From Sphingomonas rhizophila (GTDB taxonomy: Bacteria > Pseudomonadota > Alphaproteobacteria > Sphingomonadales > Sphingomonadaceae), in the NCBI RefSeq assembly GCF_014396585.1, contig NZ_CP060717.1, positions 62,001-126,000 of the forward strand: DNA of 64,000 bases, given 5' to 3'. Each line of letters starts with the position of its first letter. Position 1 is the first letter of the stretch. The notes under the pieces are model-generated. The model did no database searches and was not told where the DNA came from. It worked only from the letters and a program-made list of their open reading frames with translations. The position numbers were made by a program, and so were the translations under genes. Below are positions 6,009-30,809 of this stretch, one piece after another.

Positions 6009-6072
6009 GGGCCCTCCAGCCGCGACCCTTAGGCTTGGCCCAAAATCATTGCAACGCCACCGGGAGCGCCTA

Positions 6073-6086
6073 TGGTAGCGCTATCA
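6073..6086. promoter_or_regulatory. LacI-type operator between lacI-type gene and GH3
   Basis: The site reads TGGTAGCGCTATCA, differing from a perfect palindrome at one position. It lies between the divergent regulator and GH3 starts, 26 nt before the GH3 ATG, so one site could control both promoters. Confidence 0.75.
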
Positions 6087-6112
6087 ATAAGAAGAAGACG
6101 TTCGGAGGGGAC

Positions 6113-11508: not shown

Positions 11509-11544
11509 TCCGGCGACACTTCCGTTGAGCGACGCGGCGAAGCC

Positions 11545-11558
11545 TGTTAGCGCTACCG
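11545..11558. promoter_or_regulatory. LacI-type operator between GH67 and GH10
   Basis: The site reads TGTTAGCGCTACCG and lies in the 76-nt gap between the divergent GH67 and GH10 genes. It matches the locus consensus with a central CG and could serve both operons. Confidence 0.68.
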
Positions 11559-11584
11559 CAAGAAATCAAGCGGAGCCTTCGTCC

Positions 11585-12745
11585 ATGTCGTTTTCCATCG
11601 ATCGTCGTGCTGCGCTTGCCGGTATGGGCGGTGGCCTGGTTGCTGCCTGCACGCCGCTTCCACCTTCCAGGACCGTCGCACCCGATTCGCTCGACGGGCT
11701 GGCGCGGCGCAGCGGGCGGCGGTTCGGTTCGGCCGTCGCCTGGGGCCGTCCGGGCGCCGATCGCGGCAGCTTTGCCAACCCTGCCTACGCCGCGATCCTT
11801 GAGCGCGAATGTTCGCTGCTGGTGCCGGAAAATGAGCTGAAGTGGCAGTGGACCCGACCGTCGGCCGACCGCTTCGACTTCGCCCAATTCGACGAGATCG
11901 CCGCCTATGCGAAGGCCGGGAACTTCGGGCTTCGCGGACACACGCTCTTCTGGTTTCCGCAAAAATGGTATCCATCCTGGCTCGCGCGCCATGATTTCGG
12001 CGCTCGGCCATCCTTCGCCGCCCAGCTTCTGACCAGCCATGTCCAGACGGTTTGCCGGCGTTACGGGAACGCGATTGAATCCTACGACGTCGTCAACGAA
12101 GCGATCGAGCCCGCGACCGGCCAGATTCGCGACACCGTCATTTCGCGGACCCTTGGCGGGGAAGCGGCCATCGACCTCATGTTCCAAACGGCGCGGGCGG
12201 AGGCGCCTCACGCCGAGCTTGTCTACAACGACTATATGAGCTGGGAGCGGACTGGCGAGGACGAGACGCACATGCGTGGCGTCCTGAAATTGCTCGAAGG
12301 CTTTCGTCGGCGCGGGATACCGGTCGACGCGCTCGGCATCCAGTCGCACATCCGACTGCTCAAGAACCAGCCGGTCGCCGCAATCGTTCGCGAATCCGGG
12401 GGACCCTGGCGCCGTTTCGTCGAGGAAGTGGTTGCGATGGGTTACCGGATCCATCTCACGGAATTCGACGTGAATGACAAGGCGGCACCGGACGACGTCG
12501 CGGTTCGCGATTCGATGGTCGCTGACTTCGCTGGCGCGTACCTTGACCTGATGCTCAGCTTCCCGGCCGTGCGTGACGTCCTGGCTTGGGGAATGGTCGA
12601 CCGTTATAGCTGGCTGACCGATTTCGACCCGCGTGCGGACAAGTTGGTAAAGCGCGGTACGCCCTACGATTCGCAGTTCCGTCCCAAGCCGCTGCGCGCG
12701 GCCATCGCGCGCTCGCTGGCCGCGGCCCCACGCGCGGCCTCTTGA
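11585..12745 (+). CDS. GH10 endo-1,4-beta-xylanase, exported
   Basis: 386 aa. Cuts internal beta-1,4 bonds of xylan. A paired-arginine signal (SIDRRAALAGMGGG) ends in a possible lipobox LVAAC, which suggests Tat export and anchoring to the membrane. The barrel carries the acid/base Glu172 in DVVNEA and the nucleophile Glu293 in HLTEFDV, both typical for GH10. An in-frame start 60 nt upstream exists but would overlap the operator at 11545-11558, so 11585 is preferred. Divergent from GH67. Confidence 0.93.
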   Translation: MSFSIDRRAALAGMGGGLVAACTPLPPSRTVAPDSLDGLARRSGRRFGSAVAWGRPGADRGSFANPAYAAILERECSLLVPENELKWQWTRPSADRFDFAQFDEIAAYAKAGNFGLRGHTLFWFPQKWYPSWLARHDFGARPSFAAQLLTSHVQTVCRRYGNAIESYDVVNEAIEPATGQIRDTVISRTLGGEAAIDLMFQTARAEAPHAELVYNDYMSWERTGEDETHMRGVLKLLEGFRRRGIPVDALGIQSHIRLLKNQPVAAIVRESGGPWRRFVEEVVAMGYRIHLTEFDVNDKAAPDDVAVRDSMVADFAGAYLDLMLSFPAVRDVLAWGMVDRYSWLTDFDPRADKLVKRGTPYDSQFRPKPLRAAIARSLAAAPRAAS

Positions 12746-12769: not shown

Positions 12770-12783
12770 TGATAGCGCTAACG
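12770..12783. promoter_or_regulatory. LacI-type operator upstream of the PRC-like/JmjC/GH27 operon
   Basis: The site reads TGATAGCGCTAACG, a close match to the locus consensus, 44 nt before the first gene of the three-gene operon that ends with GH27. Confidence 0.7.
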
Positions 12784-12826
12784 GATCGACGCGAACCATC
12801 CGAAGCCGCGTGAGAGGATTGAAATC

Positions 12827-13267
12827 ATGAAGTCGAAAATCCTGGGCCTTATCCTTGCCATCGGCGTTTCCGGCCCCGCCCTCGCGCAGGCCACCGGCGC
12901 CGCCGTTCCGGGTGGCGGCGATGCGTCGCGCATCACCAACAACAACCGCCTGGAAAACAGCAATTACAACCGGGTCGTTTCCAAGATCGACCCGGTCAAG
13001 CCGGCCGATGAGAAGCCCGTCGCGGTCCGCAATGCCCGGCCGGCCCAGCCCGCCGAGGTGGTGGCCGGCAGCGCGCTTCGCGACGTCAACGGAGTTCCGG
13101 TCGGCAAGGTCGAGAGCGTGGAGTCGGATGGCGCGATCATCCTGTCCGGCGAAAAACGGGTGAAGGTGCCGCTGACGGCCTTCGGCAAGGATGACAGCGG
13201 ATTGCTAATCGCCGTGACGCAGACCAAGCTCAACGAGCTGATCGCGAAGGTTTCGAGCGCGAAGTAG
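12827..13267 (+). CDS. Small exported protein with PRC-barrel-like C-terminus
   Basis: 146 aa. A signal peptide (cleavage near GPALA-QA) is followed by an Asn-rich linker (TNNNRLENSNYN) and a C-terminal segment GSALRDVNGVPVGKVESV...VPLTAFGKDD resembling a PRC-barrel fold. No enzyme motif is visible. It is the first gene after an operator, 20 nt upstream of the JmjC-type gene and in the same presumed operon as the alpha-galactosidase. Function unknown. Similar short exported proteins occur in sphingomonads, but I cannot name the family with confidence. Confidence 0.7.
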   Translation: MKSKILGLILAIGVSGPALAQATGAAVPGGGDASRITNNNRLENSNYNRVVSKIDPVKPADEKPVAVRNARPAQPAEVVAGSALRDVNGVPVGKVESVESDGAIILSGEKRVKVPLTAFGKDDSGLLIAVTQTKLNELIAKVSSAK

Positions 13268-13287
13268 GCCGTAGCCGGGGCAGCGTC

Positions 13288-14322
13288 GTGGGATTGTCAC
13301 CGCCAATCACTGACCGGGCGTTGCCGGAAATCACGTCGCTGACAGCCGACGGCCTTGAGCAGGCGATCGGCGATGCCCGACCGCTGGTGTGGCGCGGCGC
13401 GGCGAAGCACTGGCCGGCGGTGGCGGCGGGACGGCAGTCGCCAGCCGGCCTTCGCGATTATCTGTCGTCCCTGTCGAACGAGAGCAAGGTGCAGTCGTTC
13501 GTCGCCGAACCGACGGTCGGCGGGCGCTACTTCTTCGACCATGGGCTTGATCAGTTCAATTTCGAGGTAATCGAGACCAGCCTTAACCGGTTGCTGCTGA
13601 CGCTCGACGATATCGATCGCAAGCAACATGGCCACACGGTGTACATGGGTTCGACCCCGACGCGGGCGATCATGCCGCGCTTTGCCGCCGAAAACCCGAT
13701 GCCCGTCCTGGCGAACAAGCCAACCGAACCCCGCGCCTGGATCGGCAATTCGAGCCGCATCGCCCCGCATTACGACGAGGCGGATAATATCGCGGTCGTG
13801 GTCAGCGGACGGCGGCGGTTCACGTTGTTCCCGCCAGAACAGGTCCGGAACCTGTACGTCGGACCGATCGACCGGACGGTGGCTGGCCAACCGACCAGCA
13901 TCGTCGATGTCGCTGCGCCCGACCTGGAACGATTCCCGCTGTTCCGGGAGGCCATCGATAGCGCGATGGCGGCGGAGCTTGATCCCGGTGACGCGATCTT
14001 CATTCCCAGCCTGTGGTGGCATGCGGTGGAAAGCGACGGGCCGCTCAACCTGCTGGTCAACTATTGGTGGGCCGATGGCCCCCCGGACGCCGGATCGCCG
14101 ATGCATGCCATCGTCCACGGCTTGCTGACGATCAGCCACCTTCCCGCCGACAAGCGGAAGGCGTGGCGGGAGATGTACGACCATTTCGTGTTCCGTCTGG
14201 ACAGCGATCCGGTCGCTCACATTCCCGAAAATTCGAGGAGCATTCTCGGTCAGACGTCCGAAACGCTTCGCCGCCGCATTCGCCATTATCTGATGAATGT
14301 CCTGCGGGCACTCGACCGCTAA
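13288..14322 (+). CDS. Cupin-8/JmjC-domain protein, putative Fe(II)/2-oxoglutarate oxygenase
   Basis: 344 aa, GTG start, cytoplasmic. The JmjC/cupin-8 core shows the metal-binding pair HYD in RIAPHYDEADN, a GRRRFTLFPPEQ strand, and a distal His in PGDAIFIPSLWWHAVE. This layout matches factor-inhibiting-HIF-like protein hydroxylases. The target is unknown. It sits between the PRC-like gene and GH27 (23 nt before GH27). As I recall, proteins of this type often occur near TonB receptors and tryptophan-halogenase homologues in Caulobacter and sphingomonads, which is also the case here. Confidence 0.82.
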   Translation: MGLSPPITDRALPEITSLTADGLEQAIGDARPLVWRGAAKHWPAVAAGRQSPAGLRDYLSSLSNESKVQSFVAEPTVGGRYFFDHGLDQFNFEVIETSLNRLLLTLDDIDRKQHGHTVYMGSTPTRAIMPRFAAENPMPVLANKPTEPRAWIGNSSRIAPHYDEADNIAVVVSGRRRFTLFPPEQVRNLYVGPIDRTVAGQPTSIVDVAAPDLERFPLFREAIDSAMAAELDPGDAIFIPSLWWHAVESDGPLNLLVNYWWADGPPDAGSPMHAIVHGLLTISHLPADKRKAWREMYDHFVFRLDSDPVAHIPENSRSILGQTSETLRRRIRHYLMNVLRALDR

Positions 14323-14345
14323 CGTCACATATTGAGGGGAAGCAG

Positions 14346-15569
14346 ATGATGATCAGGCGACGGGGCAAGTGGCTTTCCGGTTGTCTCGCGGCGGCGCTGA
14401 TGACCGTCCCGGCGGGCGCGCAGGAATTCGACCCCAATCATTTGCCCCCGTCGAAGGACCCGGCGCGAGTTCCCAACGGCTTGGCCAAGACGCCGCCGAT
14501 GGGCTGGAACAGCTGGAACAAGTTTGCGTGCGACATCAATGAACAGACCGTCCGCGCCAGCGCCGACGCGATGGTGTCGAGCGGCATGAAGGACGCTGGC
14601 TATACCTATGTGGTGATCGACGATTGCTGGCACGGTGAACGCGACGCCAACGGCTTCATCCAGGCCGACCCGGTCAAGTTCCCGTCGGGCATCAAGGCGC
14701 TCGCCGACTATGTGCACTCAAAGGGCCTGAAGTTCGGAATCTACTCCGACGCCGGCCGGATGACCTGCGGCAAGCGTCCCGGAAGCCAGGGGCATGAGTA
14801 TCAGGACGCGCTGACCTATGCGCGGTGGGGCGTCGATTATCTCAAGTACGACTGGTGCTACACGGGCACGCGCAATGCCGAGGAAGCCTACGCACTGATG
14901 GCCGATGCCCTAAAGGCAAGCGGGCGCGAGATTATCCTGTCGATCTGCGAATGGGGCACCAACAAGCCGTGGCTGTGGGCGTCGAAGATCGGCAATTTGT
15001 GGCGGACTACGGGCGACATTGGCGACTATTGGTCGGGCAAGCGGGAATGGCGTCGCGGGATCCTGGACATCGTCGACGAGAATGAGCCGCTGGCTCCCTA
15101 TGCCGGGCCGGGACATTGGAACGATCCCGACATGCTGGAAGTCGGCAACGGCGGGATGACCACCGCCCAGTATCGGTCGCATTTTTCGCTTTGGTCGATG
15201 ATGGCCGCGCCGCTGATTGCCGGCAACGACATTGCCAACATGGACGCCGCCACGCGCTCGATCCTGCTCAACCGCGACGTCATCGCGATCAACCAGGATG
15301 TGCTGGGCAAGCAGGGCCGCCGCATCCGTCGGCACGGCGACCTGGAGGTGTGGTCCCGGCCACTGTCCGGTGGACGGACAGCCCTGCTGTTCTTCAACCG
15401 CGGCGCGGCGGCGGCGCCGGTTGCCGTGCGCTGGTCGGAGCTGGGGCTGACGAGCGCGCGGCCAAAGGTGCGCGACTTATGGGCACACCGCGAGCTGGGC
15501 CGAATTGCCAACGGTCATTCGGCGACGCTCGAGCCTTATGGCGTGGCGATGTATACGCTCACGCCCTGA
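14346..15569 (+). CDS. GH27 alpha-galactosidase, exported
   Basis: 407 aa with a signal peptide (AALMTVPAGAQE). Removes alpha-1,6-galactose side groups, for example from galactomannan. GH27 marks are PPMGWNSWNKF, the nucleophile Asp169 in YLKYDWC and the acid/base Asp262 in NDPDMLEVG, followed by a C-terminal beta domain. The ATG at 14346 is preceded by GAGGGGAAG. Last gene of the operator-12770 operon. It overlaps the convergent GH5 mannanase gene by 11 nt, which fits joint action on galactomannan. Confidence 0.93.
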   Translation: MMIRRRGKWLSGCLAAALMTVPAGAQEFDPNHLPPSKDPARVPNGLAKTPPMGWNSWNKFACDINEQTVRASADAMVSSGMKDAGYTYVVIDDCWHGERDANGFIQADPVKFPSGIKALADYVHSKGLKFGIYSDAGRMTCGKRPGSQGHEYQDALTYARWGVDYLKYDWCYTGTRNAEEAYALMADALKASGREIILSICEWGTNKPWLWASKIGNLWRTTGDIGDYWSGKREWRRGILDIVDENEPLAPYAGPGHWNDPDMLEVGNGGMTTAQYRSHFSLWSMMAAPLIAGNDIANMDAATRSILLNRDVIAINQDVLGKQGRRIRRHGDLEVWSRPLSGGRTALLFFNRGAAAAPVAVRWSELGLTSARPKVRDLWAHRELGRIANGHSATLEPYGVAMYTLTP

Positions 15570-16928
15570 CGGTGGGGAGGGCGCTAAGTTCCGCGGCGTG
15601 GCGGCGAAGCAGGTCCTGCGTCGAGGCATCGCCGTCGAGCACGCTGTACCATCCCTGCGGCTCATGCGGGGATCGCCAAGATAGCTGCTGTCGCCGGGCT
15701 TGAAGGCGAAGTCGGCATGGGCGGCGCGGCCTTCGCCGCCCCACGCCCAGAAGTTCGTCCCGGCCACCGGTCCGCCGGCGCGCATGCTGTCGAGCGCCAG
15801 TTCGAAGATGAGGCCGTAGAAGCGGTCGCGCCATCGCGTCGAGGCCGAGCGCTCGAAACCGCCGCTGTCGCGCGGGAAGCCGAATTCCTCGACCACCAGT
15901 GGCTTGCCGAGTTGGCTCGCGATGGCAATCTGTCGGGCGAGATAGGCGCGCGTGTTTGTTTCGACCTTCGGCCAGCTGCCGGCCAGGTCCTTGGGATCGG
16001 CCCACTCCCAGTTTTGCGGCCAGATGTGCGCGGTGACATAATCGATCGACGGCGCCGAATGCGCGTTGATAACGCAGGCGTCGTCATCTAGGCATCCTTG
16101 AGTCCCCTCGCTTCCGGTCGAGACGAGATGGTTGGAATCGAGCGACTTGATCAGGCGCGACGTGTCGGAAATCCACGCGAGATAATCGCGCAAATGATTC
16201 AGTCCAACCTCCTTGCCGCCGCCGGGCCGCGGCTCGTTGGCAAGCTGCCATGACTGGATGGTCGGGTCGTCGGCATAGCGGATGCCGGTCACGCTGTTGG
16301 TGCGCGTCACGACGGCGCGGACATAGTCGTGATATTGCGCGACAGCCTGCCGGTTGGCGTAGAACTGCGAGGACATGTCGGCGAATTCCGGCCACGGGTG
16401 GGCCGGGTCGTTCATGTTGATGAAGCGGCCGCCGTTGTTCCAGTAGAGATAGGTCATCATCCCGCCGGACCATTCCCAGAAATTGGTCAGGTAGATGACC
16501 GCACGGAGGCCGCGTTTGCCCATCTCGGCAAGTGTAAAATCGAGCCCTTTCAGAAGGGTCTCGCTGTAAGCCGACGTTCGATCGCGAAACGTGGGCGTGA
16601 CCGAATTCTTGAGCGGCGAATCTTCCGACGAACCCAGCAGCCTGATGTTGGTCAGTCCCAGCACGGCGATCCGGTCCAGCTCCCGCTGCAACCGGCCGCG
16701 GTCGCCGTACGCCGCCTCAGCACCGAGATAGGCAGCGTACCACATGTTCGTTCCGACATAGCGATAGCGCCGCCCGTCGAGCGTCAGCGCCGTGCCCGAT
16801 CGTCCGACGAACGGGCGGGCGACCGGGGCACCAACAGGAATGGCGCATGAAGCAAGCGCCGCGGCGGTCCCGCCGACGAAGGTGCGCCGGCCGAGCGGCG
16901 TCGACAGAATGTTGCGCGGTGATGTCAT
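15559..16928 (-). CDS. GH5 endo-beta-mannanase, exported (apparent frameshift near C-terminus)
   Basis: About 456 aa after repair. A Tat-type signal (LGRRTFVGGTAAALASC, with a possible lipobox) precedes a GH5 barrel with acid/base Glu232 in WQLANEPRP and nucleophile Glu348 in VVEEFGFP, and the NFWEWSGG block seen in mannanases. The frame breaks at GGGG 15668-15671. A fifth G gives the sensible end YLGDP-PHEPQGWYSVLDGD, stopping at 15559; without repair the reading continues as a low-complexity tail to 15477. The ATG at 16928 is chosen because the Tat signal follows it directly. It is divergent from the TonB receptor with an operator between. Confidence 0.88.
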
Positions 16929-17040
16929 GATGGATTTGCTCCCCTGGGGACCCCGGCCTCTCCGGACCGGTTGTGACAAAATTGCTGCACTAAGCGGATG
17001 CCGTGTCGCGTTTAATCAGAATGCACATTGCGCGGTTAAT

Positions 17041-17054
17041 TGATAGCGCTATCA
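17041..17054. promoter_or_regulatory. LacI-type operator between GH5 mannanase and TonB receptor
   Basis: Perfect 14-base palindrome TGATAGCGCTATCA in the 197-nt gap between the divergent mannanase and receptor genes. It is identical to the site at 30776-30789. Confidence 0.82.
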
Positions 17055-17125: not shown

Positions 17126-20100
17126 ATGATTTCTCGCTCGGTTCGTCTTCGTGCGCGGTCGCTCGCTGCGGGGCCTCTTCGGTCGTGCTTGCGACGATGT
17201 TCCTGCTGCCTGGCCATGCCTTTGCGCAGCAGACCGATGACTCGGCCTCGGCGACGACGTCGGTCAGCGCTCAGACCGACCCTGACGCGGGCAACAATCC
17301 GGAAACATCGCCCGCCAATGCAGCGACCGACGATCCGACAACGGTCATCGTGACCGGCCAGCGCCGCGCCCTCGCGACGTCGCGCAACATCAAGCGCAAC
17401 GCCGACACGGTCGTCGATTCGATTACCGCGACCGACATCGGCGCCTTTCCCGACAAATCGGTGGCGGAAGCGCTCCAGCGCGTGCCCGGCATCACCGTCA
17501 ACCGGTTCGCCGCGACCAGCGACACCGCGCACTTCTCGGCTGAACCGTCGGGCGTCATCGTCCGCGGCCTCCCGCAGGTCCGCTCCGAATTCAACGGCCG
17601 CGATTCGTTCAGCGCCAACAGCTCGCGCGGCCTCAGCTGGGGTGACATTACGCCGGAACTGATGGCGGGTGTGGACACCTACAAAAACCAGACCGCCGAA
17701 ATGATCGAAGGCGGGATCGCCGGCTCGATCAACTTGCGTACGCGCGTGCCGTTCGATGCGACCGGGCAGCTGTTCCAGGTCGGCGCGAACATGAACTACA
17801 ACGACCTGTCGAAGAAGTGGACGCCCGACGCGAACGTCTTCTACAGCAATCGCTGGCAGACCGGCATCGGCGAAATCGGCCTGATGGGCAACGCGGCCTA
17901 CTCGCGGGTCGTCACGGCCTCGCAGGGCATCCAGTATGGCCGTGCCGCGATCATCGACAACGGCTTCGGGCCGGACGGTCCGGACACGGCCTACATCCCC
18001 TATTCGATCAACTTCCTCGACAACGAATATGACCGCAAGCGCACCGGCATCGCGCTCGCCGGCCAGTGGCGCAGCAACGATCGCAAGCTGCTCTTCACGA
18101 CCCAGTTCAACCGGTCGGTGTACAAGAACACCTGGCAGGAACGCTCGTTCGGCGCCTTCGGCCTTGGCCCCGACCTTTTCGGTCAGGATGTTCGCGCCCG
18201 CGTCGTCGGACCGCTCAATGGGTCTGGCAATCTGAGCGGACGCGTTCCGATTCCGGCACCGGGGACACCTGACTTCACGTTCGATTCGGACGGGAATTTC
18301 CAGTCGGGGACATTCAACCGCGACAACAGCGCGGGCAATTCTGGTGGGGCAGCCCGGACGCGAACCAGGGGTTTGGCGCCAACGACCAGGGCGAGCCGAT
18401 GTTCAACGCCTGCTATAACTGGGGCGGCGCGGCGAATTGCGAATATCGTGCGCCCGGCCAGCCAAGCTATGCGTCGGAAGTCGGCACCGGCAGCCGCATG
18501 AACCAGAACCGCAACATGACGATGGACTTTGCGGGCAACCTGAAATGGGAGGCGACCGACCGCCTGCGGTTCAATTTCGACGGCCAGTATGTGAAGTCGG
18601 AAATCGACAACTACGACATCTCGGTCGAACATCACTCATTCGCCAACGTCTTCCTCGATGCGACGGGCGAATATCCGCGCATCGAGCTGTCGGCCCCGAC
18701 CAACGTCAACCAGTCGGCTGGCGGCCTCGCCAACGCCAACAACTGGTACCTCCGTTCGGTCATGGACCATCTGGAGGAAAGCGAAGGCACCGAATGGGCC
18801 TTCCGCGGCGATGCGGAATATGACCTCAACACCAATTGGCTGTCATCGCTGAAGGTCGGCGCTCGCTATGCTGATCGCGACCAGACGGTGCGGTGGTCGA
18901 CCTACAACTGGGGCAATGTCGCCAACACCTGGGGCGACAACCAGCAGGCGTATTGGAACCTCGACAGCCCGGTTTATCCCAGCGGCCTCTTCGAAATTTC
19001 GCCGTTCGGCCAGTCGTTCTTCGGCGGCAACCTCGGCGAATTCCCGTTCGTGCCGGTCGACGCGCTGAAGGCGCACCGGACCGACGAATACAGCTACGAC
19101 AACATCGGGGTTGGTTCGCAACAGTGGCGCCCGATCTGCACCCGCCTGAACGAACTCCCGGACAGCTGCTTCGTCGACAACGAAATCGCCGACGTGTCGG
19201 AAACGACCAAGGCGCTGTACGCCATGCTGCGTTTCGGCGGGCCCGATGCCCAGATCGGCGGGATGACGATTTCGGGCAACGTCGGCGTTCGTTACGTCAA
19301 CACGAAGAATGTCAGCTCGGGCTACACCCGCTTCCCCCAGAACAACTACGTCTATTTCGAAGGCGATCCGCCCGAGGCCGTTTGCGACGGTGTCCTGGAA
19401 GTCGATCCGGAGCAGCCGCCGCCTCCGGCGGGCACTCCGGCAGACCCGGCGTTCTGCTACCTGTCGGACGATGACCTGGCCTTCATCAACGGTGCCTCGA
19501 CCTCCAGCACGGCCAAGGCTTCGCATCATCAATGGCTGCCAAGCTTCAACGTCAAGGCGGACCTGTCGCCGGGCTGGCTGGTGCGCTTCGCCGCGTCGAA
19601 GGCCATGTCTCGTCCCGACATGGGGCTCCTGAAGAACTTCACGTCGGTGACGACCGGCCTGCCCAGCGACGCCAGCGATCCTCGCTACATCCGCGAAGGC
19701 AACAGCCCGACCGGCGAAGTGATCGGGGTCACGCCGACGTACGAGGCGAATGCCTACAACCCGTATCTGAAGCCGACGACCGCGTGGCAGTTCGACCTTT
19801 CGCTCGAACATTACTTCGGGAACGCCGGCCTGTTCAGCTTTGCCGTGTTCCACAAGAGCTTCAAGGATTACATCCAGTACGGCATCTTCAACCTCGACCT
19901 GACGAATAACGGGGTCACGCGGACCGTCCGTGTCCGTGGTCCGGCCAATGGTGGCGGCGCCAAGATCAAGGGCTTCGAAGTGGCCTACAACCGCTTCTTC
20001 GACTTCCTGCCGAAGCCGCTCGACGGTCTCGGTATCCAGGCCAACTACACCTATGTGAAGAACAGCGGGGTGCCGAATTCGGCGCTGACCCCGGTGGGTA

Positions 20101-20519
20101 GCACCGGCGGCAACCAGACGAACGACGGCAACGCCGGAACGGCCTTGAACCCGGGTTCGCTCGAAGGACTGTCGAAGCATTCGGCCAACCTTGTCGGCCT
20201 GTATGAAAAGAACCGTCTGGCGGTTCGACTGGCCTACAACTGGCGGTCGAAATATCTCGTCACGGTGGTCGACTGCTGCGTCTATCTGCCGGTGTGGCAG
20301 AAGTCGGCAGGCTTCCTCGATGGCTCGATCCGCTACGGGCTTAGCGACAATATCGAATTGAGCTTCCAGGGCAGCAACCTGCTCAACACCAAGACCAGGC
20401 TCTTGCAGCAGGTGACCGACGAAGACAGCCCCGAAGGGCGCATCGTCCTGACGCCGAATGCCTGGTTCCAGAACGACCGCCGCTTGACCATGGGTGTCCG
20501 CGTCCGGTTCGGTAAGTAA
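17126..20519 (+). CDS. TonB-dependent outer-membrane receptor (two apparent frameshifts)
   Basis: About 1131 aa after repair. Takes up oligosaccharides across the outer membrane using TonB energy. The ATG at 17126 follows GGGGAGGG. A G missing from GGGG 17170-17173 breaks the signal peptide, which resumes as VVLATMFLLPGHAFAQQ. The TonB box region (TTVIVTGQRRALATS) and plug domain (ITATDIGAFPDKSVAEALQRVPGI) match the Xanthomonas/Caulobacter receptor type. A second break near GGG 18333-18335 is repaired to SAGQFWWGSPDAN. The barrel ends with VRVRFGK. No SusD-like partner is encoded nearby. An operator lies upstream and a strong terminator follows. Confidence 0.9.
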
Positions 20520-20570: not shown

Positions 20571-20622
20571 CTGCGCCAAAGTGAGGCGGTGAACGCTTGC
20601 GCGAACGGTGGGGCCGACAACC

Positions 20623-22125
20623 GTGAATGAACCGATCGATGTGATCATCCTTGGCGGTGGCACGGCCGGGTGGATGGCGGCGACCGGCCTCGTTTCGCTC
20701 CTGCCACCAGCCCGTTGCCGGGTGCACCTGATCGAAAGCGACGAAATCGGGATCGTCGGCGTCGGCGAAGCGACGCTCCCGCAGATGAAGTCGTTCAACG
20801 ACCTGTGCGGCATCGATGAAGCTGAAATGATGCGGGCGACCAACGCCACCTTCAAGCTTGGCATCCAGTTCGTCGATTGGGGCTCGCTCGGCTCCTCCTA
20901 CATCCACCCGTTCGGGATTCATGGCCCGCCAGGCACCGAGCATATCTTCCACCACAAATGGCTTCGCGCGTCGCGGGAAGGCCTTCCCGGCCAGATCGAC
21001 GATTTCAGCTTCGCCTGCCGGGCAGGAGTGGCGAACCGTTTCGACTTCCCGCCCAAATCCAGCCAGTCCATCGGCAGCAGCTACAGCTACGCCTACCACT
21101 TCGATGCCAGCCTGTACGGCCGATACCTTCGCACCATCGCCGAGCGCCGCGGCGTCCGCCGGACCGAAGGCAAGGTCGCCAACGTCGAGACCGACGCGGA
21201 GAGCGGCAATATCGTCGCGCTTCGACTGGAGAATGGCGAAGAGATTCGCGGCGATTTCTTCATCGACTGCTCTGGGTTCCGTTCACTCCTGCTGGGGCAG
21301 ACCCTGGACTCGCCGTGGGAGGACTGGACGAAATGGTTGCCCTGTGACCGCGCCCTGGCTGTTCCGACCGAACGCGCCGGCGAGTTGACGCCTTACACAA
21401 GGTCGACGGCGATGGAGGCAGGCTGGCGCTGGCGCATTCCGCTTCAGCATCGCACGGGCAATGGCTACGTTTTCTCGTCGCGCTTCATCGACGAGGACCG
21501 CGCTGCCGAACAGCTGCTGTCAGCGCTTGACGAACCGACCCTGGCGGAACCGCGACTGCTGAAATTCGGCGCTGGTCGCCGGACTGAATCCTGGCGCAAG
21601 AACTGCGTCGCGCTCGGTCTCTCGAGCGGTTTCCTGGAACCGTTGGAATCGACCAGTATCTACTTGGCGCAGATCGCCATCATGCACTTCGTGCCGTTGT
21701 TCCCCGAACGTCGCGCGGACCCCTCGCTCGCAGCCGAGTTCAACCGCCGGGTCGACCTTGAATATGATCGCATCCGTGACTTCCTGATCCTCCATTATCA
21801 TTTGAACCAACGCGACGATTCCGAACTGTGGCGCTATTGCCGGTCGATGAGCGTGCCCGACAGCCTGACCGAGAAAATGGAGCTGTTCCGCCATTCCGGG
21901 TTCGTCGAGAAATATCGCGACGGCCTGTTCACGCCGCCCAGCTGGCTTGCGGTCTATTTCGGCCAGGGCCTCAGACCTGAGCATTACCATCCGCTCGCCG
22001 ATGCCATCCCGGCGGCTGCACTGATGGACGAAATGGACGACCTCCGCGCTGACATCGATGATCGTGTCGACGCCATGCTGAAGCATTCGACCGTCGTCGA
22101 GCGCTACGCCGGGATCAACGGATGA
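20623..22125 (+). CDS. Flavin-dependent tryptophan halogenase-family protein 1
   Basis: 500 aa from the GTG at 20623 (a GTG 15 nt upstream lacks a ribosome site). The FAD-binding motif GGGTAGWMAA, GEATLP, the halogenase signature GWRWRIP, and LEPLEST with the catalytic Glu are all present. Lys78 in NATFKLGIQF aligns with Lys79 of RebH/PrnA, which carries the hypohalous acid, so the active site looks complete. Substrate unknown: free tryptophan is unlikely in this setting, and related enzymes from Brevundimonas and Xanthomonas accept indoles and favour bromide. The stop overlaps the next start (ATGA), so the three halogenase-family genes form a coupled operon. Confidence 0.88.
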   Translation: MNEPIDVIILGGGTAGWMAATGLVSLLPPARCRVHLIESDEIGIVGVGEATLPQMKSFNDLCGIDEAEMMRATNATFKLGIQFVDWGSLGSSYIHPFGIHGPPGTEHIFHHKWLRASREGLPGQIDDFSFACRAGVANRFDFPPKSSQSIGSSYSYAYHFDASLYGRYLRTIAERRGVRRTEGKVANVETDAESGNIVALRLENGEEIRGDFFIDCSGFRSLLLGQTLDSPWEDWTKWLPCDRALAVPTERAGELTPYTRSTAMEAGWRWRIPLQHRTGNGYVFSSRFIDEDRAAEQLLSALDEPTLAEPRLLKFGAGRRTESWRKNCVALGLSSGFLEPLESTSIYLAQIAIMHFVPLFPERRADPSLAAEFNRRVDLEYDRIRDFLILHYHLNQRDDSELWRYCRSMSVPDSLTEKMELFRHSGFVEKYRDGLFTPPSWLAVYFGQGLRPEHYHPLADAIPAAALMDEMDDLRADIDDRVDAMLKHSTVVERYAGING

Positions 22126-23614
22126 CGGACCGCGTGCGCCGCCTGGTTGTCGTCGGTCGGGACATCCCGCTCTGGCTTTCAGCGATCGGCCTCCAAAGCG
22201 CACTTGGCCGCGCGGATCTCGAGGTCCGGGTCGTCGAGTTGCCAAGCTATCTGCAGCCGACCGACGCCCTTGCCGCCGTCCCGTCGATCGTCGCGCTGCA
22301 CCGTACACTCGGGATCAGCGATGCGGTGCTTCCCCGGCTGTGCGGCGCGGTGCCGATGGTCGGGCAGCGGTTTGCAAACTGGTCGGGCGGGGCGCCGCCG
22401 TTCGTGCTCGGCTTCGACACCGAACCGCCCGGCGACGGCGACATCCCGTTCGCACAATATTGGGCAAAGGGCCGGCTGGAGGGTCTTCGCGTTCCGCTGG
22501 AGGACTTTTCCCTCGGCTCGGTGGCCGCGCGTCAGGGCCGGGTGCCCGGCCTGTCTGACGAGACGTCTGGGCCGCTCAATGCAGGTTTCGGCTACCACCT
22601 CGAAGCCGGGCCATATGCAGCCGTCCTCCATCGCTTCGGCCAGCAGGCGGGCATCCCGTCCACCTTTACGAACGGCGTAACGGTGGAGCGCGAGGGCGAC
22701 CGGATCGTCGCGGTCGTCACGGCGGAGGGCGAGCGCATCGAAGGCGACCTGTTCATCGACGCGTCGGGACCGGATGCGGTGCTGTCGTCGCCGCAGCACG
22801 ACGATTTCGAGGACTGGAGCCGCTGGCTTCCGTGCGATCGGATCCTGACCGCGTCCGCCGCCCAGTTGCCCAACCCGCCAGCCTACAGCCAGGTGTCTGC
22901 TTTCGCGCAGGGTGGGTCGGCCTGTATCCGCTCGCTCGGCGAACCGGGGTCATGGCCGCTTTCTCGTCCGCGCATATCGACGAACGGCGCCTTGCCAAAC
23001 AGCTGCCGGCGCTGACCGGTCTGCCGCTCGCCGGCGACGTCGTGGTCGCGGCGCTGCGCCCCGGCATGCGGTCGCCGTGGCAGGGCAATTGCATCGCCAT
23101 TGGTGAGGCGGCTGCCTCTCTCGATCCGCTCGATGCGATGGCCATCCACGTCATCCACGCCGGCCTTTCGCACCTGATCGCCCTGTTCCCGACGACCAAG
23201 TCGTCATTTCCCGAGGCGGCGGCCTACAATCGCCAGTTGCGCGGACTGCTGACCGGCATTCGCGATTTCCAGGCGGCGCACTACGCCCTGAACCGGCGCT
23301 TCGACGAGCCATTGTGGGATGCGGTTCGCGATGCCGCCCCGCCCGAGACGCTGGAACGAAAAAGCCGACTGTTTGCCCTGCGCGGCGACGTCCCCATCCT
23401 TGACGAGGAACCATTCGACGCGGCGCGGTGGACCGAGTTGTTCGTCGGTCACGGCGTGGTGCCGGAGTCTTACGACCCGCGCGTCGACCTATTGCCGGAT
23501 GCCGCGCACATCCAGCGGGTCCAGCAGCGGCTGCGCGATATCGCGACGCTTGTCGAGGCAATGCCGACCGTGACGCAATTCTTGCGCGGCTTCCAAACCG
23601 AGCCTGCCCAGTGA
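22122..23614 (+). CDS. Degenerate tryptophan halogenase-family protein (apparent frameshift)
   Basis: About 497 aa after repair. Clearly related to its neighbours (ASGPDAVLSS, DWSRWLPCDR, and a similar C-terminal half) but the key motifs are lost: the FAD loop reads VVVGRDIPLW, position 79 is Met in place of the catalytic Lys, the signature is GWVGLYP instead of GWRWRIP, and LEPLEST is LDPLDAM. It is probably not a halogenase and may be a binding or scaffold subunit. The frame breaks near GGG 22910-22912; one extra G gives FAQGWVGLYPLARRTG. Start and stop overlap both neighbours by 4 nt. Confidence 0.82.
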
Positions 23615-25116
23615 CCGCAGATCCCGTCCGCGACGTTGTCATTGTCGGCGGTGGAACGGCCGGCTGGATGGCCGCCAGCGCCTTGATCAAGGCGCTGGGA
23701 AACAAGATCACCGTAACCCTGATTGAATCCGATGAGATCGGTACGGTCGGCGTCGGTGAAGCGACCATCCCGCCGATCATGTTCTTCAACAAGCTGCTTG
23801 GTCTCGACGAAAATGAGTTCGTTCGCGAGACCAACGCGACCTTCAAGCTGGGCATCGACTTCGTCGACTGGCGCCGCCTTGGTCATCGCTATTTCCACAA
23901 CTTCGGATTGCTCGGCGCGGAGATCCGCAACGGCACCGGCTTCATCCAATATTGGCTGCGATCCATCGCCGGCAACGCCAGCGCCGACCCGTCCACGTTC
24001 AGCGCCGAGACGCTGGCGGCCGCGCAAGGGCTGTTCGGGCGGGCCGGCCGCGACAACAGCGGCCTGCCCAACATCAATTACGCCTTCCACTTCGATGCAT
24101 CGACCTACGCCGCGTTCCTCCGCCGCTATTCCGAACGGCGCGGAGTGGTTCGGCGCGAGGGCAAGGTGGTCGGGGTCGAGCAGGATGGAGAGAGCGGCAA
24201 TATAACTTTCGTGACGATGGCCGACGGGCGGCGAATCAAGGGCGACCTGTTCTTCGATTGCTCCGGCTTTCGCGGCCTGCTGATCGGCGAGACCCTTGGC
24301 TCCGATTACGAAAGCTGGAACCATTGGCTGCTCAACGACCGCGCCATCGCGGTGCCGTGCGAGCGGACCGAGCAGACCACGCCCTACACCCGCGTGACCG
24401 CGCGCAAGGCCGGGTGGCAATGGCGCATCCCGTTGCAGCATCGCATCGGCAACGGCCATGTCTTCGCCGACTCCTTCATCAAGGAAGACGAGGCGCGCGA
24501 CATCCTGCTCGCCAACGTCGACGGCAAGCCGCTTGCCGATCCTCGAACGCTGCGATTCACGCCGGGGCGCCGGCGCCGCTGCTGGGTCAAGAATTGCATC
24601 GCAATGGGCTTGTCGAGCGGTTTCCTCGAGCCGCTGGAATCGACCAGCATCCACCTTATCCAGGTGGCGGTGATGAAGCTGATCGCCTTCTTCCCCGACC
24701 GTCGCTTCGATCCGATCGTCGTTGACCGCTACAACGACGAGATGAACCTGTTGCTGGAAGCCATCCGCGACTTCCTCATCGCCCATTATCACGTCACCGA
24801 ACGCGACGATTCCGACTATTGGAATTACCTCCGGACGATGGAAATTCCGACCTCGCTCGCCGACAAGCTGGAACTGTTCCGGACGCGCGGTGAAACCCTG
24901 CCGGGTCCCAACGAACTGTTCAGCGAGATCAGTTGGTTCGCGATCCTGTGGGGGCAGGGCATCCGGCCCACTGGCTATCATCCGGTCGCGGACGCCATGC
25001 CGCAGGACGACCTCAACCTTACCCTCGACCGTATTCGCGCCGCCATTCAGCAGCGCGTCGCCGGGCTGCCCATGCACGACGATTACATCCGCCAGAACTG
25101 CGCGTCGGCGACCTAG
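23611..25116 (+). CDS. Flavin-dependent tryptophan halogenase-family protein 2
   Basis: 501 aa, GTG start overlapping the previous stop (GTGA). Complete motif set: VGGGTAGWMAA, GEATIPP, Lys79 in NATFKLGIDF, GWQWRIP and LEPLEST. The C-terminal half has HYHVTERDDSDYW and GQGIRPTGYHP, shared with the other members here. It probably uses FADH2, oxygen and halide, so a flavin reductase must be supplied from elsewhere; none is encoded in the window. Its TAG is interlocked with the stop of the convergent SGNH gene (CTAG). Confidence 0.88.
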   Translation: MTADPVRDVVIVGGGTAGWMAASALIKALGNKITVTLIESDEIGTVGVGEATIPPIMFFNKLLGLDENEFVRETNATFKLGIDFVDWRRLGHRYFHNFGLLGAEIRNGTGFIQYWLRSIAGNASADPSTFSAETLAAAQGLFGRAGRDNSGLPNINYAFHFDASTYAAFLRRYSERRGVVRREGKVVGVEQDGESGNITFVTMADGRRIKGDLFFDCSGFRGLLIGETLGSDYESWNHWLLNDRAIAVPCERTEQTTPYTRVTARKAGWQWRIPLQHRIGNGHVFADSFIKEDEARDILLANVDGKPLADPRTLRFTPGRRRRCWVKNCIAMGLSSGFLEPLESTSIHLIQVAVMKLIAFFPDRRFDPIVVDRYNDEMNLLLEAIRDFLIAHYHVTERDDSDYWNYLRTMEIPTSLADKLELFRTRGETLPGPNELFSEISWFAILWGQGIRPTGYHPVADAMPQDDLNLTLDRIRAAIQQRVAGLPMHDDYIRQNCASAT

Positions 25117-27420: not shown

Positions 27421-28779
27421 GTGGTCTCGGAAAGCAAGCCGACCTCTGGCGTCACCGGCGCGTTCATCATCGTCACATGCCTGTTCTTCGCGTGGGGCTT
27501 CATCACCGCCCTCAACGATCCCTTGGTCGCCGCGGTCAAAGGCATCTTCACACTGACGCGCTTCGAGGCGCAGTTCGTCGCCTTCGCCTTTTTCATCGCC
27601 TACGGCCTGATCTCCTTCCCCGCCGCCGCATTGCTGTCGCGGGTGCGGGCGATGCCGTCGATCATCGCGGCGCTGATCGCGATGATCGTAGGCTGCCTGA
27701 TCATCCTGCTGGCGGCCAATGCAGCGGTATTCACGCTGGTGCTGGTCGGCCTGTTCGTCCTGGCGAGCGGGATCACGATCCTTCAGGTCGCGGCCAACCC
27801 GCTGGTCGCCGCTCTGGGCGATCCGTCGAAAAGCCACTTCCGCCTGACGCTCAGCCAGACGTTCAACTCGCTGGCGACGTTCATCGCCCCGATCCTCGGC
27901 TCCCACCTTTTCCTGAAGGGGCTGGAGGTCAAGGAAGGCGTCGTCGTGACCGAAGAAGTGCGGCAACGCGCGCTCGGCGGCATCGACACCGCCTATGTCT
28001 GGCTGTGCGGGATGATTGCCGCGCTGGCGCTGTTCATGTGGATTTATCGCCGCACGGTCACCGCCGCGCTTCCCGCCCCGGCGGCTGACAGCGGGCAGGG
28101 CGTCGGTGCGCTTATCAGCGACGCCCTCTCATCGAAGTGGGCGCTGTTCGGCGGCGCCGCGATCTTCCTCTACGTCGGCGCGGAAGTCGCCATCGGGACG
28201 CAGATGACCGCGTTCCTCAACGACAACGCCATCTGGGGTCTGTCCGACGCCCCGTTCGCTGTTCCATTGCTCGGTGCGACGATGGGCAGCGACGGCATCG
28301 CCGGCGTCTCGGTCGAGGAGGCAGGCAAGGCTGTCGGCTTCTACTGGGGCGGCGCGATGGTCGGCCGGGCGATCGGTTCGGTCCTGCTGGCGCGCTTCTC
28401 GGCGCCGAAGCTGCTGGCCGTGTTCACCGCCATCGCCGCGGCGATGTGCCTCTATGTCGTGATGGTCGGCGGCGTCAGCGCCGGATTCGTCGCGTTGGGC
28501 ATCGGCCTGTTCAATTCGATCATGTTCCCAGTGATCTTCACGATCACGCTCGAACGGTCGACGGCCAGCACCGAAGCGACGTCGGGCCTGCTGTGCACGG
28601 CGATCGTCGGCGGCGCGCTTCTCCCGCTACTGGTCGGCAAGGTGTCGGAAATCACCAGCTACCACGCGGCGCTGATCGTTCCGGCCGCCTGCTATGCCCT
28701 GCTTTGTGTGTTCGCGATTGCGTCGCACAAGGCCAAGGTCACGCTGCGCGACGAACCAACCGCCGCGACGGTTCACTAG
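27421..28779 (+). CDS. MFS hexose transporter, FucP/GluP family
   Basis: 452 aa, GTG start after GGGGAGG. Twelve predicted membrane segments. Family marks are FFAWGFITALNDPL in TM1, ILQVAANPLVAALG in TM4 and RLTLSQTFNSLATFIAP in TM5, all typical of FucP-type proton symporters for fucose, glucose or galactose. In this locus it may import galactose or mannose released by GH27 and GH5. The sugar is inferred. Its TAG is interlocked with the stop of the convergent halogenase gene. Confidence 0.88.
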   Translation: MVSESKPTSGVTGAFIIVTCLFFAWGFITALNDPLVAAVKGIFTLTRFEAQFVAFAFFIAYGLISFPAAALLSRVRAMPSIIAALIAMIVGCLIILLAANAAVFTLVLVGLFVLASGITILQVAANPLVAALGDPSKSHFRLTLSQTFNSLATFIAPILGSHLFLKGLEVKEGVVVTEEVRQRALGGIDTAYVWLCGMIAALALFMWIYRRTVTAALPAPAADSGQGVGALISDALSSKWALFGGAAIFLYVGAEVAIGTQMTAFLNDNAIWGLSDAPFAVPLLGATMGSDGIAGVSVEEAGKAVGFYWGGAMVGRAIGSVLLARFSAPKLLAVFTAIAAAMCLYVVMVGGVSAGFVALGIGLFNSIMFPVIFTITLERSTASTEATSGLLCTAIVGGALLPLLVGKVSEITSYHAALIVPAACYALLCVFAIASHKAKVTLRDEPTAATVH

Positions 28780-30278
28780 CTTGCGACGGCGCGGTCGATA
28801 AACTCGGAAGCCGAGGGCATCGACCGCGCCGTGTCGGCGTAGGCCGCTCGAAGTTCCGTCATCGCTGACAGGACGCCGGCGTCGGGCAGGGCGTCCGCGA
28901 CCGGATCGATCCCGCGCGGGATCAACCCCTGGCCGATCATCACCGCCACCCAGCTCGAGATGTCGAACAGCTCTTCGTTGTAACGGAAAACGCGGCCATG
29001 CTCGGCCCACAGGTCGAGCTTGTGCTGCAAACTGTCCGGGACGGCCATCTCGCGGCGCTCGACCCAGAACGGCTCCGTCCGGCGGTTCGCCTTGTAGTGC
29101 AGGATGATGAAGTCGCGGATCGGCTCATAGCTTTCGACCATGTGCCGGTTGTACTCGTCCCGCTCCACCGTCATCGACCGCCTGTCGGGGAACAGCGCGA
29201 TCAGCTTCTGAATGCCGCGCTGGATAAGGTGGATGCTGGTCGACTCCAGCGGCTCAAGGAAACCGCTCGACAACCCGATGCCGACGACGTTGCCGGCCCA
29301 ACTCCGCTCCCGCCGTCCCGCCTTGAAACGAAGGCGGTTGACCGCCGCGATCGGCTCACCGTCGAGCGATTCAAGCAGCAGCCGCTCCGCTTCGTCGTCG
29401 CTCATGTGGGCGCTCGAATAGACATGACCGTTGCCGGTTCGGTGCTGCAGCGGGATTCGCCATTGCCAGCCCGCGGGGCGCGCCGTCGACCGGGTGAAGG
29501 GCGTCATCGGATCGGTCCGCGCCGACGGAACGGCCGCTGCCCGATCGCACGGCAGCCAGTGGCTCCAGTCCTGGAAAGGAACGCCCAGCGTCTCGCCCAG
29601 CAGCATGCTCCGGAATCCCGAACAGTCGACGAACAGGTCGCCGCGGACCTTGCGTTCCCCTTCGATCGAGACCGCGGCTACATCGCCTGTTTCGCCGTCG
29701 CGGTGGATCTCGACGATGCGGCCCTCGATCCGTTCGACACCGCGCGCTTCGGCAAATCCTCGTAGGAACTGGCCATAGAGCGACGCATCGAAGTGGAAGG
29801 CGTACGACAAGGCGTTGAGCGGGGAGTTAGGCTGGCCCGTCGGCCAGGCAAACCGGCACTGGGCCGCGGCGGCGCCCGACATCGAATAATCGTCGAGCGG
29901 ACCGACCCGACTGTCCGAACGGTGCTTCAGCCACAATTGGTAGAGCGCGGATCCCTCGAGCGGATGGCCGATATCGCCGAATTGGTGAAAGTAGCGATGG
30001 CCCGGTTCGAGCCATTCGTCGAAAGAGATGCCAAGTTTGTAGCTTGCCTTCGTCGCACGCAGGAATTCGCGTTCGTCGATGCCAAGCGACCGGTTGAATT
30101 CCAGGATGGGCGGGATCGTCCCTTCGCCGACGCCGACCGTGCCGATCGCATCCGATTCGATCAGGATGATCCGGCGTCGGCCGCCGCCCAGGAACCGCGA
30201 CAGCGCGGCGGCGGTCATCCAGCCGGCGGTGCCGCCGCCGACAATCACGATGCGGCGAATCTGATCCTCGCGCGACAC
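28776..30278 (-). CDS. Flavin-dependent tryptophan halogenase-family protein 3
   Basis: About 500 aa. The GTG at 30278 follows GGGGGGAG; an ATG at 30296 is possible. Motifs: VGGGTAGWMTAA, GEGTIPP (Gly where the others have Ala), the catalytic Lys in KASYKLGISF, GWQWRIP and LEPLEST. It stands alone, about 3.7 kb from the three-gene halogenase operon, and follows a small lipoprotein gene by 19 nt on the same strand. Closest in outline to the protein at 23611-25116. Substrate unknown. Confidence 0.87.
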   Translation of the reverse strand: MSREDQIRRIVIVGGGTAGWMTAAALSRFLGGGRRRIILIESDAIGTVGVGEGTIPPILEFNRSLGIDEREFLRATKASYKLGISFDEWLEPGHRYFHQFGDIGHPLEGSALYQLWLKHRSDSRVGPLDDYSMSGAAAAQCRFAWPTGQPNSPLNALSYAFHFDASLYGQFLRGFAEARGVERIEGRIVEIHRDGETGDVAAVSIEGERKVRGDLFVDCSGFRSMLLGETLGVPFQDWSHWLPCDRAAAVPSARTDPMTPFTRSTARPAGWQWRIPLQHRTGNGHVYSSAHMSDDEAERLLLESLDGEPIAAVNRLRFKAGRRERSWAGNVVGIGLSSGFLEPLESTSIHLIQRGIQKLIALFPDRRSMTVERDEYNRHMVESYEPIRDFIILHYKANRRTEPFWVERREMAVPDSLQHKLDLWAEHGRVFRYNEELFDISSWVAVMIGQGLIPRGIDPVADALPDAGVLSAMTELRAAYADTARSMPSASEFIDRAVAS

Positions 30279-30297
30279 GTCACTCCCCCCGATCATT

Positions 30298-30669
30298 TCA
30301 GCGGTAAGGCACCCAGTCCTGCAAGTTGCAGGTGGGCCCGGCGATGATTGCGCCAGGCTCTGCCGCGCGCACGCGATCGCCGCGGCAAATCTCGGACCCG
30401 CCGCGTTCAACGATCACCAGATTGTGGGGATCGAGCGACGGGCAATTCGCAAGCAGGGTATTCACCCAGAGGGTGCGCCCGTTCTCGTAGGCGACATGAC
30501 GCGAGTCGATCACCCGAATGTTTTGTGACGGCGTGGTCGACACGCAACGTTGCGCTGCGCCTGCGGTCCGGCCCGCCAACGCTTGCGCCAGGATGTCGTC
30601 GTTCCGCTCGACGGGCACCGCACAGGCGGTGATCGCCGCGATCGCCGGGAGGACAATGGTCGTACGCAT
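30298..30669 (-). CDS. Small lipoprotein, DUF6491-like
   Basis: 123 aa from the ATG at 30669 (GAGGAAC just upstream), with a signal ending in the lipobox ITAC. The body holds four conserved-looking Cys (QRCVS, NCPSLD, EICRGDR, PTCNLQ) and the pattern RVIDSRHVAYENGRTLWVN that I associate with DUF6491. Function unknown. It is the first gene of a two-gene unit with the halogenase-family gene at 28776-30278, and is divergent from a GH5 gene with a perfect operator between. Confidence 0.7.
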   Translation of the reverse strand: MRTTIVLPAIAAITACAVPVERNDDILAQALAGRTAGAAQRCVSTTPSQNIRVIDSRHVAYENGRTLWVNTLLANCPSLDPHNLVIVERGGSEICRGDRVRAAEPGAIIAGPTCNLQDWVPYR

Positions 30670-30775: not shown

Positions 30776-30789
30776 TGATAGCGCTATCA
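30776..30789. promoter_or_regulatory. LacI-type operator upstream of GH5 (and of the lipoprotein-halogenase unit)
   Basis: Perfect palindrome TGATAGCGCTATCA, 20 nt before the GH5 start and 106 nt upstream of the divergent lipoprotein start. Identical to the box at 17041-17054. Confidence 0.82.
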
Positions 30790-30809
30790 CAAAAATGGGG
30801 AGAGTGACG

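What the first reader, a model, noticed from the sequence alone, without database searches (positions are those of the whole stretch)
12770..15569. JmjC/cupin-8 oxygenase and a PRC-like exported protein in an alpha-galactosidase operon
Seen: operator, small exported protein, JmjC-type protein with HxD and distal His, and GH27 run head to tail with gaps of 20 and 23 nt. Known: JmjC/FIH-type enzymes hydroxylate protein side chains. Inference: a protein-modifying oxygenase co-regulated with glycan enzymes, next to halogenase homologues, hints at post-translational tailoring of the uptake apparatus, perhaps of the TonB receptor.
Basis: partly seen in the sequence, partly recalled or inferred. Interest (0 to 1): 0.58.

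Follow-up and report, generated by a model that had tools for sequence, protein, structure and literature searches.

The report
Oxygenase tied to halogenase uptake cluster
A bacterial gene for a protein-hydroxylase-like enzyme sits in a sugar-uptake locus near halogenases and an outer-membrane receptor, and similar gene groups recur in distant relatives, which hints that these enzymes modify a shared but still unknown target.

Summary
In detail: operator (12770-12783), small exported protein (12827-13267), Cupin_8/JmjC protein (13288-14322) and GH27 (14346-15569) run head to tail with gaps of 20 and 23 nt. The oxygenase has an intact HxD...H site and models best on JMJD5, TYW5 and FIH. Of the genome's 9 TAGCGCTA operator cores, 6 lie within 48 kb here.

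In the genus 25 of 45 Cupin_8 genes lie within 10 kb of a listed halogenase, 1.5 expected. Outside the class, 9 of 12 loci carry receptor-SapC-Cupin_8-halogenase. The small protein precedes a Cupin_8 gene in 4 of the 5 genus genomes with a strong match. GH27 is not a conserved neighbour.

That the receptor is the substrate is untested, and one comparison speaks against a common acceptor residue: receptors of the window's type share only 3-5 of 48 residues typical of SapC-cassette receptors. I favour a cytoplasmic 2OG hydroxylase acting on a protein or peptide of the uptake system: class near certain, substrate a guess. Ten searches of the openly licensed library listed no paper on the cassette.

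The parts
12770..12783 (.). Operator-like palindrome TGATAGCGCTAACG upstream of the cassette
   Evidence: perfect TGATAGCGCTATCA at the same place in 3 of 3 relatives with the pair, L034, L035, L065
12827..13267 (+). C6: small exported protein with a PRC-like C-terminal part
   Evidence: ORF; signal peptide by eye; weak PRC-barrel fold matches; profile search of 71 genus genomes
13288..14322 (+). Cupin_8/JmjC-type Fe(II)/2OG oxygenase; H161, D163, H245; Arg176 where FIH has the 2OG-binding Lys214
14346..15569 (+). GH27 alpha-galactosidase; third gene of the run, not a conserved neighbour
15477..16979 (-). GH5 mannanase-type enzyme (Man5A-like)
   Evidence: Best solved match 1uuq/Man5A, E 1e-106; no Pfam hit at 0.001
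17041..17054 (.). Perfect operator TGATAGCGCTATCA before the receptor
17185..20519 (+). TonB-dependent receptor, read in two overlapping frames (frame break)
   Evidence: Plug and barrel domains in the two frames
20608..22125 (+). Flavin-dependent halogenase 1
   Evidence: Trp_halogenase E 1.4e-184; best solved matches 6y1w and BrvH 6frl
22122..23614 (+). Flavin-dependent halogenase 2, in two frames (frame break)
23428..25116 (+). Flavin-dependent halogenase 3
   Evidence: Trp_halogenase E 1.4e-183
28776..30410 (-). Flavin-dependent halogenase 4
   Evidence: Trp_halogenase E 2.6e-182
6073..6086 (.). Operator copy at the start of the GH3 gene (6002-8515)
11545..11558 (.). Operator copy at the start of the GH10 gene (11525-12745)
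30776..30789 (.). Operator copy before a GH5 cellulase-family gene (30795-31805)

Best explanation
The gene encodes a cytoplasmic Fe(II)/2-oxoglutarate hydroxylase of the JmjC (Cupin_8) group. It is the oxygenase part of a recurrent uptake module: TonB-dependent receptor, flavin-dependent halogenase(s), Cupin_8 oxygenase and often SapC. In this species group SapC is not detected in the locus, and an exported PRC-like protein (C6) stands directly before the oxygenase. The cassette carries the same operator core as nearby hemicellulose genes and the receptor-halogenase unit. Most likely mechanism: when plant polysaccharide is present a LacI-type repressor leaves, and oxygenase and halogenases modify side chains of a protein or peptide of the uptake apparatus before export, C6 or the receptor being the first candidates. 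Shown: gene order, family, intact metal site, co-occurrence, operator conservation. Inferred: hydroxylation, protein substrate, identity of the target, the repressor.
For: Cupin_8 E 1.6e-64; model pLDDT 92.9, JMJD5 Z 26.2, TYW5 25.5, FIH 24.7; metal ligands invariant in 29 of 29. Within 10 kb of a listed halogenase: 25 of 45 in the genus, 1.46 expected; 21 of 30 in genomes of at most 10 contigs, 0.94 expected, largest of 20,000 simulations 6. Complete receptor-SapC-Cupin_8-halogenase sets in 9 of 12 loci outside the class, 3 of 8 stretches from other alphaproteobacterial genera, and 3 of 3 in G096. C6 directly before Cupin_8 in G000, G031, G034, G012, 4 of the 5 strong matches among 71 genomes, with a conserved operator. 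BrvH, near relative of the halogenase, has an open site and no known natural substrate (passages of PMC5945002).
Against: No activity or modified protein was seen. The lysine holding 2OG in FIH, JMJD5 and KDM4A (PMC9712658) is Arg in 28 of 29 rows, and the Thr196 partner aligns to Ala, so 2OG binding differs from the model enzymes. No candidate acceptor position is shared by SapC-type and window-type receptors and rare in controls. C6 is absent from the Cupin_8 loci of most genomes, so it cannot be the general substrate. Several Cupin_8 genes stand apart from receptor and halogenase: L101, L104, L105, L123, L038, L045, L071. Halogenases are much commoner than Cupin_8 (matches in 55 against 28 of 61 genomes, weak ones included).
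Confidence: 0.42

Rival explanations
1. Small-molecule tailoring: halogenases and oxygenase act on a free aromatic or amino-acid compound, for instance phenolics released from hemicellulose or indoles, and the receptor imports or senses the product.
For: BrvH brominates free indole to 3-bromoindole (abstract and passages of PMC5945002); esterase genes stand in the locus.
Against: BrvH turns indole over slowly, and its authors doubt that indole is natural; it does not accept tryptophan. The oxygenase's closest solved relatives mostly act on proteins.
Confidence: 0.27
2. The oxygenase modifies a general target (ribosomal protein, tRNA or a regulator) and is merely expressed with the sugar genes, as an oxygen or 2OG dependent tuning step.
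For: Fold scores tie it with TYW5, a tRNA hydroxylase, and JMJD5; several Cupin_8 genes stand apart from any receptor.
Against: Repeated cassettes with receptor and halogenase in several classes are hard to explain for a housekeeping modifier; only 27 of 100 relatives have a match at all.
Confidence: 0.11
3. The protein has lost 2OG chemistry and serves as a binding or sensing protein.
For: The 2OG-binding Lys is Arg in 28 of 29 rows, and the FIH Thr196 position is Ala here.
Against: H161, D163, H245 and N167 are invariant in 29 of 29 rows; Arg serves the same purpose in prolyl hydroxylases (PMC9712658, section 7).
Confidence: 0.1

Closest known systems
FIH (HIF asparaginyl hydroxylase), JMJD5 and JMJD7
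   Same: Cupin/JmjC fold, HxD...H metal site, profile E 1.2e-32 (FIH) and 1.5e-30 (JMJD5 domain)
   Different: Arg at the 2OG-binding Lys, no alcohol residue at the Thr196 position; bacterial gene cluster with receptor and halogenase; substrate unknown
TYW5 (tRNA wybutosine hydroxylase)
   Same: Fold, Z 25.5 over 271 residues, rmsd 3.6
   Different: Genomic setting; substrate class not tested
BrvH flavin-dependent halogenase (6FRL), and 6y1w
   Same: Window halogenase 1 matches 6y1w at E 5.2e-143 and 6frl at 7.5e-140
   Different: The BrvH paper treats the halogenase with another halogenase gene; the words TonB and cupin do not occur in it
Carbohydrate utilisation (CUT) loci with TonB-dependent receptors (PMC1790865, abstract and passages)
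   Same: Receptor, sugar enzymes, sugar transporter and regulator together
   Different: The words halogenase, cupin and SapC do not occur in that paper's main text

Membership tests
Cupin_8 / JmjC Fe(II)/2OG oxygenases | Family profile above its curated cut-off | tested here: met
   218.7 bits against a cut-off of 27.4
Cupin_8 / JmjC Fe(II)/2OG oxygenases | HxD...H metal ligands | tested here: met
   H161, D163, H245, 29 of 29 rows
Cupin_8 / JmjC Fe(II)/2OG oxygenases | JmjC hydroxylase fold | tested here: met
   Model pLDDT 92.9; JMJD5 Z 26.2, 230 aligned, rmsd 2.5
Cupin_8 / JmjC Fe(II)/2OG oxygenases | Lys for the 2OG C5 carboxylate, as in FIH and JMJD5 | tested here: not met
   Arg176 here; Arg in 28 of 29 rows. 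Arg could replace it, so family membership is not excluded
Cupin_8 / JmjC Fe(II)/2OG oxygenases | 2OG-dependent hydroxylation | not testable with these tools
   Needs biochemistry
Receptor-SapC-Cupin_8-halogenase cassette | Receptor and halogenase near the Cupin_8 gene | tested here: met
   Receptor from 17185, halogenases from 20608
Receptor-SapC-Cupin_8-halogenase cassette | SapC gene in the cluster | tested here: not met
   tblastn with four SapC proteins, E up to 0.01: no hit in the whole window or in eight sister stretches
Receptor-SapC-Cupin_8-halogenase cassette | Receptor of the SapC-cassette clade | tested here: not met
   The window's receptor is split and was not placed; its counterparts L064, L067 and L033 lie outside the clade. 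So the window is a variant, not a member of the strict cassette
PRC-barrel proteins (for C6) | PRC-barrel profile or fold | tested here: inconclusive
   No Pfam hit; 3htr Z 6.2, Foldseek best E 7.5e-03, model pLDDT 66

The most novel reading that the evidence does not exclude
Receptor, SapC, JmjC oxygenase and flavin halogenase form a widespread oxidative tailoring system: a TonB-dependent uptake system whose own protein or peptide part is halogenated and hydroxylated on demand, with SapC or, in this lineage, the exported C6 protein as carrier or substrate. That would give the receptor-linked halogenases their native substrate.
Probability: 0.22. Interest if true: 0.87.

Novelty: new variant of a known kind. 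Interest (0 to 1): 0.52.

Why it matters
Halogenases of this kind are common here (matches in 55 of 61 genus genomes, 54 over the family cut-off), yet the authors of a studied relative could not name its natural substrate (PMC5945002). A second oxygen-using enzyme from a family that largely modifies proteins, repeatedly placed in the same cassette across classes, narrows the search. One deletion strain and one mass-spectrometry comparison of receptor, SapC and C6 would tell whether bacteria chemically modify their uptake apparatus.

Tried and rejected
GH27 as a conserved partner: rejected. The gene after the oxygenase belongs to another family in L035 and L036, an alpha-L-fucosidase in the copy tested.

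C6 as a general partner: rejected. Of seven weaker C6-like genes inspected, 0 of 7 lie near a receptor, halogenase or Cupin_8 gene in the stretch fetched.

A common acceptor residue in the receptor: 22 SapC-cassette receptors against 20 controls, 17 of them from the same genomes as cassette receptors in the set (G323, G468, G515, G497, G096) and 3 from G060 and G007, which also hold cassettes. Controls were chosen as receptors away from Cupin_8; whether they lie near halogenases was not checked. The first runs had wrong reading frames in 7 of 54 rows (found); one search replaces them. There 48 columns separate the groups, but the groups are different clades, so this marks kinship rather than modification. 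Three controls (L139, L140, L141) share 39, 32 and 29 of the 48. Window-type receptors share 3 (L064), 3 (L067) and 4 (L033), and the G007 receptor 5 (L066).

Literature: ten searches. Eight touched the cassette (8, 15, 16, 23, 31, 34, 44, 64); no listed title is about it. Searches listed only 15 of 127 and 15 of 58 papers. The library holds openly licensed PubMed Central papers only. Seen: PMC9712658 passages and section 7; PMC5945002 and PMC1790865 abstract and passages; the rest search listings.

Dropped before the count: fragments G012:C277, G010:C1:414810, G045:C5:182551 and weak rows of G022, G001 and G035. The halogenase list was cut by the tool and some split or partial rows were left out, so the count is a lower bound: G041:1459558 counts as a miss although one search shows halogenases on both sides. 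The random model spreads positions evenly over the genome and ignores contig breaks. My simple gene caller failed on L042 (three ORFs), replaced by tblastn; it may have missed other genes, so SapC counts are lower bounds.

Full report
Observation. The window is bases 62001-126000 of a 2.56 Mb single-contig genome. The nearest named relatives found for this gene are Sphingomonas segetis (58%) and S. parva (50%).

The oxygenase. Pfam gives Cupin_8 at 1.6e-64. A model built from 29 related sequences has pLDDT 92.9. Closest solved structures are JMJD5 (Z 26.2, 230 aligned, rmsd 2.5), TYW5 (Z 25.5, 271, 3.6) and FIH (Z 24.7, 284, 5.8); rows within one Z unit are ties. By sequence FIH leads (profile E 1.2e-32). 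H161, D163, H245 and N167 are invariant in 29 of 29 rows. One feature sets the group apart: the lysine that binds the 2OG C5 carboxylate in FIH, KDM4A and JMJD5 (PMC9712658, section 7) aligns to R176, and Arg stands there in 28 of 29 rows; the exception is the divergent second Cupin_8 gene of this genome, L053. The same paper says prolyl hydroxylases use Arg, so activity may persist. By eye the oxygenase has no signal peptide, while both flanking proteins do.

The small protein C6. No Pfam family. Its model is poor (pLDDT 66); the ordered C-terminal part matches PRC-barrel proteins weakly (that reaction-centre H subunits, RimM and CdvA hold such barrels is recalled). Among 71 held genus genomes five have a strong profile match (171 bits or more; the next is 93): G000, G031, G034, G012, G007. 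In four it directly precedes a Cupin_8 gene (in G012 the contig ends inside that gene). In G007 it stands beside a receptor in a halogenase cluster about 10 kb from a Cupin_8 gene. Cupin_8 of the window, G031, G034 and S. parva group together (97/100; G012 was not in the tree). No C6 was found beside the S. parva gene.

Regulation. TAGCGCTA occurs 9 times in the genome, 6 of them within 47.9 kb including this locus; 0 of 200,000 random sets were as tight. Window sites stand at the starts of GH3, GH10, C6, the receptor and a GH5 gene. In G031, G034 and G012 a perfect TGATAGCGCTATCA stands just upstream of C6. Core sites also lie at the receptor gene in L064 (G031) and L067 (G012); none was found in the G007 stretch L066. 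Binding by a LacI-type protein is inferred: the local gene at 4957-5664 has the LacI-type sugar-binding domain. Neighbouring enzymes point to mannan and xylan: Man5A-type GH5, GH27 and GH10, GH67, esterases.

Co-occurrence. In the genus 25 of 45 Cupin_8 genes lie within 10 kb of a listed halogenase, 1.46 expected; in genomes of at most 10 contigs 21 of 30, 0.94 expected, largest of 20,000 simulations 6. Of 8 stretches from other alphaproteobacterial genera, 3 have receptor, SapC, Cupin_8 and halogenase, 2 lack only SapC, 3 have Cupin_8 with neither receptor nor halogenase. In G096, another family of the order, 3 of 3 are complete. In a phylum sample 15 of 249 genomes have a match at E 1e-40 or better, 8 of them outside the class; their 12 fetched loci hold 9 complete cassettes, 1 without SapC, 1 with only the receptor, 1 with none. 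Halogenases are commoner than Cupin_8 (55 against 28 of 61 genomes), so they do not need it. The window's own form is a variant: SapC is not detected anywhere in the 64 kb, and C6 stands where other loci have SapC.

Receptor as substrate. Untested. The 22 SapC-cassette receptors form a clade that takes in 1 of 20 controls (support 0.979); receptors of the window's type (L064, L067, L033), that of G007 (L066) and those of L103 and L107 lie outside and share 3 to 5 of the 48 typical residues. No W, N, D, H, Y, K, R or P position is shared by SapC-type and window-type receptors while rare in controls. This speaks against one acceptor residue common to both types, not against modification as such.

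Mechanism. I commit to a cytoplasmic 2OG hydroxylase acting on a protein or peptide of the uptake system, induced with the polysaccharide genes, beside halogenases whose near relative BrvH has an open site that its authors compare with MibH and think fit for larger substrates (passages of PMC5945002). Odds, as judgement: enzyme class 0.9; part of the receptor-halogenase module 0.95; protein or peptide substrate of the uptake system 0.42; C6 in particular 0.2.

Novelty. Each part belongs to a known family. No listed paper in ten searches describes the cassette, within the limits told under Tried and rejected. The operator-C6-oxygenase form without SapC is a variant that I have not seen described.

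Noticed in passing
window 4957-6008, 9446-11508, 17185-20519, 22122-23614: Four genes (LacI type, GH67, receptor, halogenase 2) are each spread over two overlapping frames; elsewhere in the genome a receptor (333841-336419) and a halogenase (343763-345129) are split likewise. Residual assembly errors are likelier than four real breaks.
   Followed up: partly
L118, L119, L120, L122, L124, L126, L127, L128, L129: Complete receptor-SapC-Cupin_8-halogenase cassettes outside the class of this genome.
   Followed up: yes
window 13813-13815: Arg176 replaces the 2OG-binding Lys of FIH and JMJD5; Arg in 28 of 29 aligned relatives.
   Followed up: partly
L038, L045, L071: Orphan Cupin_8 genes with a conserved neighbourhood of their own, beside a gene that looks like a class I lysyl-tRNA synthetase (recalled from its N-terminus, not tested).
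   Followed up: no
L124 receptor residues 114, 302, 369, 638 (example of the SapC-cassette clade): N114, N302 and D369 (22 of 22 against 5, 3 and 2 of 20 controls) and W638 (20 of 22 against 4 of 20) mark SapC-cassette receptors; targets or mere clade markers.
   Followed up: partly
L064 2000-19136, L068: G031 and G034 carry much the same mannan-type locus (GH5, receptor, three halogenases, esterases, MFS, a fourth halogenase), with ROK kinase and a phosphomannose-isomerase-like gene in L064.
   Followed up: partly
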